In this document: positions 38,006-39,206 of the stretch, in pieces
Layout: each line of letters begins with the position of its first letter
How positions within the stretch are numbered: position 1 is the first letter of the stretch
From: an uncultured bacterium
GTDB taxonomy: Bacteria > Patescibacteriota > Minisyncoccia > Phycocordibacterales > UBA9973
Assembly: GCA_903869825.1 (NCBI GenBank)
Contig: CAIQAL010000031.1
Span: forward strand, 1 to 54,620
Length of the DNA stretch: 54,620 bases
Direction of reading: 5' to 3'
Translations under genes and position numbers: made by a program
The notes under the pieces: model-generated
What the model was told of the DNA's origin: nothing
The model's database searches: none
What the model saw: the letters and a program-made list of their open reading frames with translations, nothing else

Positions 38006-38129
38006 AAGTTGCAGAAGACGAGAATCACGTTGTTGTCATCCCAGTCATTCTCGAAGTAACCAAGATTGAACTTGAAGTTACCGTCCGAGTTGGCATTCAC
38101 GTTAGGCACCCTGTGGTTGCCGTCAGCGT
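38006..38129 (-). repeat. DGR template repeat (TR)
   Basis: 124-nt ungapped match to 38494-38617; 16 mismatches, all at A in the TR (minus-strand sense). Confidence 0.96.
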
Positions 38130-38395
38130 ACGCAAAGCAACGTACAACACACTTTCTTTCCCACTAAAATCAGCACCAGCCAATTTTTGTATTTTATTTT
38201 GAGTCTTAATAACTCACTAATGTATTGCACCGACTTATTTTGTTTTTTCATGAAAGGACGCACTCATTCACAAGACGTATCCAATGAACCCCTCGCGTTT
38301 CCTTTGACGAGAAATTGACTATGTGAAGTCGTAACCGCGCATCAATCTTTTTCCTTTTTTGATTATATCTTAAAAATTAAATTTTACATAAAAAA

Positions 38396-38421
38396 AGTGC
38401 CTTTACAAAAGTAAAGGCACT
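38396..38421 (-). terminator. rho-independent terminator downstream of the DGR target gene
   Basis: AGTGCCTTTAC-tttt-GTAAAGGCACT followed by T-run on the minus strand; perfect 11-bp stem. Confidence 0.85.
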
Positions 38422-38465
38422 AGAATCAAGGGTCTAAGGACCCAATGTTTTTAGAATCAAAGCGA

Positions 38466-39206
38466 CTAAGTGCTAGCCTGCTCGCTAGCAGGCAAGTCGC
38501 AGAAGACGAGAATCACGTAGAAGTCATCCCAGTCACCCTCGAAGTAACCAAGAACGAACCCGAAGCCACCGTCCGAGTAGGCATCCACGTAAGGCACCCT
38601 GTGGTAGCCGTCAGCGTCTTCCCAGAGAGCATCCTTTTCATCAAAAGAAATCGTCCATTTGCCCTTTAAGAGTTTTTCTTTTGCAACGTCGTAAACCAAC
38701 GTTACACCCTGCCCGCCTGCTAATATGCCATTGTACCTGCGCGAGATATTCATACAATCTTCGCTCGTTACTGTTTCGAGTATCGGAATCATTTTCACTC
38801 TGTAGGTTTTGCCGGGTTCCAGCTTTCGGGTTGCTTTTGAAAAATTCTTGCTATTGAGGTCATTGTTGTAGTAATACGTAGTCTTTTCCTTTTTTGCTTT
38901 TTGGGCAGAGGCGTCAATCTGCGTATCGTGGTTGTAGTCAGCAGGAACAGTTAAGTTAAATTCAACAGGAATACCGAAGCGTTTGTCAATGATTGCAAAC
39001 TTTTTGAGTAATGCGGTCATAAACGTTTTGATTTCGTCCTGAATTAAATTCCCTTTTTTGAAAATTTCCTGTGCTTCTTCCTTAGTAAAACCAAGGTTGA
39101 CGAGGTCACCGGAATTAAATGAATTAATTCCATCTTCAAGCAACCTCTTGATTGCCTTAAGCTGACCTTCGGTCATAGGATCTGATGTAATCTTTTCAGT
39201 TATCAT
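38466..39206 (-). CDS. DGR target (variable) protein, likely C-type-lectin-like C-terminal fold
   Basis: VR encodes the C-terminal DADGYHRVPYVDAYSDGGFGFVLGYFEGDWDDFYVILVFCDL. Confidence 0.92.
   Translation of the reverse strand: MITEKITSDPMTEGQLKAIKRLLEDGINSFNSGDLVNLGFTKEEAQEIFKKGNLIQDEIKTFMTALLKKFAIIDKRFGIPVEFNLTVPADYNHDTQIDASAQKAKKEKTTYYYNNDLNSKNFSKATRKLEPGKTYRVKMIPILETVTSEDCMNISRRYNGILAGGQGVTLVYDVAKEKLLKGKWTISFDEKDALWEDADGYHRVPYVDAYSDGGFGFVLGYFEGDWDDFYVILVFCDLPASEQAST
38476..38493 (-). promoter_or_regulatory. hairpin/cruciform abutting the 3' end of the VR
   Basis: GCCTGCT-AGCG-AGCAGGC (7-bp stem, 4-nt loop) directly adjacent to the VR boundary. Confidence 0.8.
38494..38617 (-). repeat. 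DGR variable repeat (VR)
   Basis: in-frame 3' part of ORF 38466-39206; A-specific divergence from the TR. Confidence 0.96.

What the first reader, a model, noticed from the sequence alone, without database searches (positions are those of the whole stretch)
38006..38617. 16 TR/VR differences in 124 nt, every one at a template adenine
Hand alignment (TR 38006-38129 versus VR 38494-38617, no gaps). On the minus strand the VR changes are AAC>TAC (x4), AAT>GAT, AAC>GGC, AAG>GGG, AAT>GTT, AAT>GGT, AAC>TTC and AAC>GAC, i.e. 11 codons and 16 bases. By hand count the TR has 33 adenines in this span, so roughly half were changed and no G, C or T was. The TR is rich in AAC/AAT codons, which allows wide amino-acid substitution without creating stop codons.
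Basis: seen in the sequence. Interest (0 to 1): 0.85.

Follow-up and report, generated by a model that had tools for sequence, protein, structure and literature searches.

The report
Hypermutator cassette with a stochastic switch
This is a real protein-diversifying retroelement in a tiny Patescibacteria genome. Across its relatives, the gene for an essential helper protein begins behind a slippery run of identical bases, so the mutation machine itself appears to be switched on and off at random, which as far as I could find has not been described.

Summary
It is a diversity-generating retroelement (DGR): TR, VR, DGR-type RT and Avd are all present. That alone would be ordinary.

The surroundings are not. 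(1) Avd is on the opposite strand, head-to-head with RT; all 77 related Patescibacteria loci with a detectable Avd share this, whereas viral-contig DGRs are mostly same-strand. (2) A simple repeat (here C11, 37616-37626) lies between Avd's upstream ATG and its conserved core. It is present at 95 of 112 distinct junctions, against 22 repeats in 807 kb of flanking DNA. The repeat type changed many times (polyG, GA, CT, GT) while its place stayed. (3) In 95/95 an upstream ATG is in frame with avd at one of three tract lengths, and 28/95 are in frame as assembled; other lengths give short peptides (median 25 aa). (4) Three metagenomic Avd proteins with identical cores have N-termini that fit one DNA read at different tract lengths. 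(5) TR lies in a discrete, structured RNA: a covarying leader, absent from Rfam, and an intrinsic terminator just after TR.

Best reading: a DGR whose essential cofactor is phase-variable. Slippage and activity are inferred, not measured.

The parts
38466..39206 (-). Variable (target) protein, 246 aa; VR is its C-terminus
   Evidence: ORF; no Pfam/NCBIfam family above cut-off; homologues in 8 of 100 relatives; AlphaFold model pLDDT 76 whose best PDB matches are C-type lectins but too weak to count (E>0.1)
38494..38617 (-). VR (variable repeat)
   Evidence: 124-nt repeat, 87% identical to TR, 16 differences all at template A
38476..38493 (-). Hairpin GCCTGCTAGCGAGCAGGC (7 bp, 4-nt loop) directly 3' of VR, as in the BPP-1 target
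   Evidence: such hairpins in 14/93 related loci vs 2.7% of shuffles
38396..38421 (-). Terminator-like hairpin + T run closing the target-gene transcript
38362..38367 (-). TATAAT, putative -10 of the TR-RNA promoter, at a conserved TATA-like position in relatives
   Evidence: consensus only, not evidence of transcription
38135..38269 (-). Structured 5' domain of the TR RNA (12-bp helix closing just before TR, inner hairpins)
   Evidence: covariance model R1, 97.4 bits, next best hit in window 15.9; covariation
38006..38129 (-). TR (template repeat)
37973..37995 (-). Intrinsic terminator of the TR RNA (stem-loop, then TTTTTTCT), opposite the avd stop codon
   Evidence: 30/30 relatives; 95/108 vs 26/216 control windows
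37642..37989 (+). avd core (four-helix bundle), antisense to the TR-RT direction; GTG 37642 is the first start codon in frame as assembled
   Evidence: Pfam bAvd, NCBIfam Avd, PHROG Avd; fold = BPP-1 Avd
37616..37626 (+). Homopolymer tract C11 on the avd strand (G11 on the RT strand); proposed phase-variation switch
   Evidence: only G/C run of 9 or more in the 774-kb genome
37587..37589 (+). Upstream ATG of avd (MNKHTKTINYPPP...), antisense to RT codon 4; out of frame at C11 (27-aa peptide), in frame with avd at one in three tract lengths
37627..37645 (-). Inverted repeat GCACAAGC-GGT-GCTTGTGC next to the tract
   Evidence: read
36609..37598 (-). DGR reverse transcriptase, 329 aa from ATG 37598 (LPLGNLTSQ and YADD motifs)
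36573..36593 (.). Palindrome TTACTGCAC-NNN-GTGCAGTAA just after RT
   Evidence: only two copies in the genome, one on each side of the cassette
39307..39327 (.). Second copy of the palindrome, upstream of the target-gene promoter

Best explanation
A chromosomal Patescibacteria (Ca. Nomurabacteria-like) DGR. A short TR RNA, with its own promoter, a structured 5' domain and a terminator right after TR, is copied by the RT with Avd; adenines are miscopied and the cDNA replaces VR at the end of the target gene. The avd gene runs the other way, from an ATG inside the 5' end of RT, through a C11 tract, into the four-helix core. Replication slippage in the tract changes the frame, so Avd, and with it mutagenic retrohoming, is on in only some cells. 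Shown here: the parts, the adenine-only differences, the conserved geometry, the frame logic, the conserved RNA structure, and natural protein variants that fit different tract lengths. Inferred: slippage in this organism, loss of retrohoming when avd is out of frame (known for BPP-1 Avd), and the selective benefit (bet-hedging).
For: DGR: 16/16 at A; RT, Avd. Orientation: Avd head-to-head with RT in 77/77 genome loci with a detectable Avd, against 57 of 66 same-strand in viral-contig DGRs. Tract: simple repeats at 95 of 112 distinct junctions (80 polyG, 12 GA, 2 CT, 1 GT) within 15 kb, vs 22 in 807 kb of flanks; 0/49 at the avd 5' region of canonical same-strand DGRs; sole G9+ run in the own genome; 26 of 50 G9+ runs in 20 genomes lie at an avd start. 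Repeat type changed at least 16 times on the RT tree while its place stayed. Frame: 95/95 have an upstream ATG in frame with avd at one of three lengths (52.5% expected from antisense RT interior; 78 have exactly one such frame); 28/95 in frame as assembled; ON product median 132 aa, OFF median 25 aa. Natural variants: P0016/P0018/P0019 have identical 105-aa cores (3, 62 and 1 contigs) and N-termini VLVRAK / VNIKSYPPPAQ / MSEHKIVPPPAQ that fit one DNA in different frames; its reverse complement reads G-run, 9 nt, then ATG TTC ACT CAT = RT start MFTH. Tract-poor homologues start MSEHKETTKSATVQVPLVLVR, at the same site. Inactivating avd drops retrohoming to background in the reconstituted BPP-1 DGR (PMC12875486). 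Patescibacteria DGRs (clade 2) were reported less active than average (PMC8144416), as expected if many cells are OFF.
Against: No tract-length distribution, expression or retrohoming was measured. In the window the C11 state is OFF, but GTG 37642 could still start a 115-aa Avd that covers nearly the whole bAvd domain; 47/95 loci have such a start near the core, so OFF may be leaky in this subgroup. VR divergence does not differ between ON and OFF loci (p = 0.42). The null for an upstream ATG ignores that the ATG is partly fixed by a conserved RT His codon. The natural-variant evidence is protein-level from metagenome assemblies; an assembly error in a homopolymer could mimic rare forms. 17 of 112 divergent loci lack a tract.
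Confidence: 0.82

Rival explanations
1. Ordinary DGR; the G tract is only a long Shine-Dalgarno-like element for RT, and avd starts constitutively after the tract.
For: In many loci the G run ends about 9-13 nt before the RT ATG, and a GTG lies after the tract in the window; 47/95 loci have a start near the core.
Against: (CT)n and (GT)n tracts occupy the same place and cannot pair with anti-SD; tract-to-RT-ATG distance varies (4-108 nt, sd 16) more than tract-to-avd-core distance (sd 8); 48/95 loci have no start near the core after the tract; tract-poor homologues start upstream of the site.
Confidence: 0.1
2. The tract switches transcription (promoter spacing, G-rich RNA or DNA structure, antisense control between the TR/RT transcript and avd) rather than avd translation.
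For: The junction is only about 45 nt between divergent starts, avd is antisense to the RT-ward transcript, and an inverted repeat lies beside the tract.
Against: The tract lies inside an ATG-initiated open frame in 95/95 loci at one of three lengths, which a transcriptional tract would not need; repeat type is free to change.
Confidence: 0.1
3. TR and VR are simply a duplicated gene end that diverged by ordinary mutation.
For: Only that the two copies are near each other.
Against: 16/16 changes at A, 1529/1569 at A in 93 loci, with RT and Avd alongside.
Confidence: 0.005
4. A decaying DGR: the out-of-frame avd in the window is a dead gene, not a switch state.
For: The sister locus L078 has an interrupted tract and an in-frame TGA in RT.
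Against: RT is intact here with all motifs; the avd core is conserved and intact; about a third of related loci are in frame, as a switch predicts.
Confidence: 0.07

Closest known systems
BPP-1 DGR (Bordetella phage): mtd-VR, avd, TR, brt
   Same: Adenine-specific TR-to-VR transfer, homologous RT, same Avd fold (4dwl), hairpin after VR
   Different: There avd precedes TR on the same strand and a structured spacer 3' of TR recruits RT-Avd and primes cDNA (PMC12875486). Here avd is antisense and downstream of TR, TR is followed within 5-21 nt by a terminator, and the conserved structure is 5' of TR
DGR clade 2 of Roux et al. 2021 (Patescibacteria/CPR; PMC8144416)
   Same: Patescibacteria chromosomal DGR whose target has no recognisable domain; almost certainly this clade (their tree was not rerun here)
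   Different: In the passages read, that paper does not mention Avd orientation, a repeat tract or a TR-RNA structure; it reports lower-than-average activity for the clade
Simple-sequence contingency loci (Neisseria, Haemophilus, Campylobacter, Helicobacter phase variation)
   Same: Homopolymer or dinucleotide repeat after the start codon, about one length in three in frame, short OFF peptides, repeat type interchangeable
   Different: There the switched genes are mostly surface structures and methyltransferases; here it is the cofactor of a targeted mutator

Membership tests
Diversity-generating retroelement | TR/VR pair with substitutions confined to template adenines | tested here: met
   16/16 at A, 33 A in 124 nt
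Diversity-generating retroelement | DGR-type RT | tested here: met
   RVT_1 E 2.9e-26; best solved chain BPP-1 DGR RT 8ub7 E 2.7e-42; LPLGNLTSQ and YADD conserved
Diversity-generating retroelement | Avd or other accessory protein | tested here: met
   bAvd Pfam above cut-off; NCBIfam Avd hit 53 bits, below its 80-bit cut-off; fold match to 4dwl TM 0.83-0.88
Diversity-generating retroelement | VR at the C-terminal end of a target ORF followed by a hairpin | tested here: met
   ORF 38466-39206; hairpin 38476-38493; the hairpin is found in only 14/93 relatives
Diversity-generating retroelement | Target with C-type-lectin fold (usual, not universal) | tested here: inconclusive
   Best PDB matches are C-type lectins but E>0.1 and TM about 0.2
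Diversity-generating retroelement | Mutagenic retrohoming activity | not testable with these tools
   No reads or experiments
BPP-1-type DGR architecture | avd on the same strand, upstream of TR | tested here: not met
   avd is on the opposite strand, between TR and RT
BPP-1-type DGR architecture | Long structured spacer RNA 3' of TR that primes cDNA | tested here: inconclusive
   A terminator follows TR within 5-21 nt in 30/30 loci; transcript ends were not measured
Simple-sequence phase-variable (contingency) gene | Unstable simple repeat between start codon and gene body, conserved in place | tested here: met
   95/112 junctions; 95/95 with upstream ATG
Simple-sequence phase-variable (contingency) gene | Repeat length sets ON/OFF frames, OFF gives early stop | tested here: met
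   ON median 132 aa, OFF median 25 aa, 224/226 under 60 aa
Simple-sequence phase-variable (contingency) gene | Repeat length varies within a population | tested here: inconclusive
   One set of identical-core Avd proteins fits three tract lengths; protein level only, no reads
Simple-sequence phase-variable (contingency) gene | Expression switches reversibly | not testable with these tools
   Needs reporter or proteomics
Known Rfam RNA families | Match to a described family at TR or leader | tested here: not met
   No gathering-level match; only a chance-level miRNA hit at E 0.71 over 36500-39400

The most novel reading that the evidence does not exclude
Across a large Patescibacteria DGR clade, the hypermutation machine itself is under stochastic, reversible control by a slippery repeat in its essential cofactor gene, so that only a minority of cells diversify at a time; and its template RNA is a free-standing structured RNA with its recognition domain 5' of TR, implying a priming or recruitment mode different from BPP-1.
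Probability: 0.7. Interest if true: 0.88.

Novelty: new variant of a known kind. Interest (0 to 1): 0.8.

Why it matters
DGRs make targeted diversity, but how cells decide when to mutate is largely open. A repeat-based switch on Avd would be a second-order control: random switching of a random mutator, i.e. bet-hedging on mutability. It would explain why Patescibacteria DGRs look less active in metagenomes than others (PMC8144416), and it can be tested at once by reading tract lengths in existing deep metagenomes. The conserved TR-RNA leader gives a handle (covariance model R1) for finding these elements and for working out how cDNA synthesis is started without the BPP-1 spacer.

Tried and rejected
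Further VRs elsewhere in the genome: none. Mobile-unit idea from the two palindromes bracketing the cassette: not shared by relatives (the 12-nt word search was coarse and missed the window's own pair), left as a curiosity. VR divergence as a read-out of ON/OFF state: no difference. PDB sequence search with Avd: nothing, but the fold search was clear. A third protein search for more phase-variant sets found only the P0016/18/19 set. Literature: no paper found that joins DGRs with phase-variable tracts; Paul et al. 2017 and Wu et al. 2018, the likeliest places for the reversed Avd, are not held, so that single feature may be known.

Full report
OBSERVATION. TR 38006-38129 and VR 38494-38617 align without gaps at 87% identity. 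All 16 differences are at template adenines (9 A>G, 7 A>T), with 33 adenines available. Chance alone gives about 6e-10. The window is contig 31 of a 774-kb, 38-contig, 99% complete genome. The nearest RT in named genomes is from Ca. Nomurabacteria (L078). No other copy of TR occurs in the genome.

IT IS A DGR. The ORF at 36609-37598 (minus) is an RT: RVT_1, best solved chain the BPP-1 DGR RT 8ub7, with conserved LPLGNLTSQ and YADD. The target ORF 38466-39206 ends in VR, and a hairpin follows VR at once. The Avd is on the plus strand, 37642-37989: bAvd and PHROG Avd by sequence (the NCBIfam Avd hit is below its cut-off), and BPP-1 Avd 4dwl by fold (TM 0.83-0.88). So far this is a new member of a known kind.

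AVD IS BACKWARDS. Avd lies between TR and RT, antisense to both, its start about 45 nt from the RT start and its stop 16 nt from the end of TR. Of 80 related genome loci, all 77 with a detectable Avd have this head-to-head order. Among IMG/VR loci 57 of 66 with Avd have the familiar same-strand order.

A SLIPPERY TRACT SITS AT THE AVD START. Between the two starts lies G11/C11 (37616-37626). It is the only G/C run of 9 or more in the genome. In 112 distinct head-to-head loci, 95 have a simple repeat there: 80 polyG of 7-14, 12 GA, 2 CT, 1 GT. The flanks of the same loci hold 22 simple repeats in 807 kb, and 0 of 49 canonical DGRs have one near the avd start. On the RT tree the repeat type changed at least 16 times. 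A conserved place with an exchangeable sequence points to the repeat itself as the function.

FRAME LOGIC. The avd frame reads through the tract (C-run gives Pro-Pro-Pro, GA gives Ser-Leu). In all 95 loci an upstream ATG, often antisense to an RT His codon, is in open frame with avd at one of three tract lengths, in 78 exactly one frame; at comparable antisense RT positions only 52.5% have any. As assembled 28/95 are in frame, near one third. In-frame products have median length 132 aa, out-of-frame ones 25 aa. In the window C11 puts ATG 37587 out of frame (27-aa peptide). Tract-poor homologues start at the corresponding upstream site (MSEHKETTKS...). In a tractless outgroup (L041, L042, L044, L047) avd starts with an ATG at or beside the RT start.

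NATURAL VARIANTS. P0016, P0018 and P0019 have identical 105-residue cores but N-termini VLVRAK..., VNIKSYPPPAQ... and MSEHKIVPPPAQ.... The last two fit one DNA, ATGAGTGAACATAAAATCGTA-Cn, in two frames; its reverse complement gives G-run, 9 nt, then ATG TTC ACT CAT (MFTH), an RT start of this family. This is the closest evidence for real tract variation, seen at the protein level only.

THE TR TRANSCRIPT. On the TR strand an intrinsic terminator begins 5-21 nt after TR in 30/30 loci (control 15/90); around the avd stop it is found in 95/108 of the larger set (control 26/216). Upstream of TR are a TATA-like box and about 220 nt of leader with a 12-bp helix closing just before TR and inner helices. 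In 22 sequences 98.4% of pair cells are standard pairs; the covariation score is 0.814 against 0.303 shuffled and at most 0.21 slid. Model R1 then found 72 of 80 genome loci (a few of these duplicate model sequences under other locus names), all on the RT strand, and only six of 44 viral contigs. Rfam has nothing there. In BPP-1 the structured RNA that recruits RT-Avd and primes cDNA is 3' of TR (PMC12875486); here there is little room 3' of TR, so recruitment from the 5' domain is the natural inference, untested.

MECHANISM. Shown: parts, spectrum, geometry, frames, RNA covariation. Known from BPP-1: without Avd retrohoming falls to background (PMC12875486; also PMC10053308). Inferred: slippage switches avd and so the whole mutator. 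Weak points: a GTG after the tract may give a nearly complete Avd in the OFF state in the window's subgroup; VR divergence does not track ON/OFF state, as expected if switching is faster than VR turnover but also if the tract does nothing.

NOVELTY. DGRs in Patescibacteria are known (PMC8144416, clade 2, reported as less active than average). Simple-repeat phase variation is known in other bacteria. I found no report joining the two, nor of this TR-RNA leader, in the library held; two key papers could not be read. I therefore call it a new variant of a known kind.

Noticed in passing
36573-36593 and 39307-39327: A 21-nt palindrome TTACTGCAC-NNN-GTGCAGTAA occurs exactly twice in the whole genome (up to 2 mismatches), bracketing the DGR cassette; not seen in relatives. 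Operator, terminator or mobility mark unknown.
   Followed up: partly
41437-42546 (minus), beside tRNA-Asn 41377-41451: Large serine recombinase that keeps the Recombinase and zinc-ribbon domains but lacks the N-terminal catalytic domain; the upstream frames are full of stops. Probably a remnant of an integrated element at the tRNA.
   Followed up: partly
L078 (Ca. Nomurabacteria CG_4_10_14_0_2_um_filter_30_12): The sister locus has a tract interrupted by T (GTGGGTGGGGGTGGG) and an in-frame TGA in RT, as if the switch and then the element decayed.
   Followed up: partly
P0035, P0042, P0177: Avd N-termini with THTHTH suggest (CA)n repeats at the same site, a further repeat type.
   Followed up: no
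G003 contig 7:14325, G035 contig 11:974, G030 several: Some relatives carry long G runs away from any avd (up to 15 G), so other phase-variable genes may exist in these reduced genomes.
   Followed up: no
38494-38617: No A>C change among 16 in this VR, although C makes up about 20% of changes in related loci; may be chance.
   Followed up: no
P0018/P0101-type N-termini: In some species two nested starts (ATGAGTG, ATGAATG) lie in different frames before the tract, which would give two translated phases and one OFF phase.
   Followed up: no
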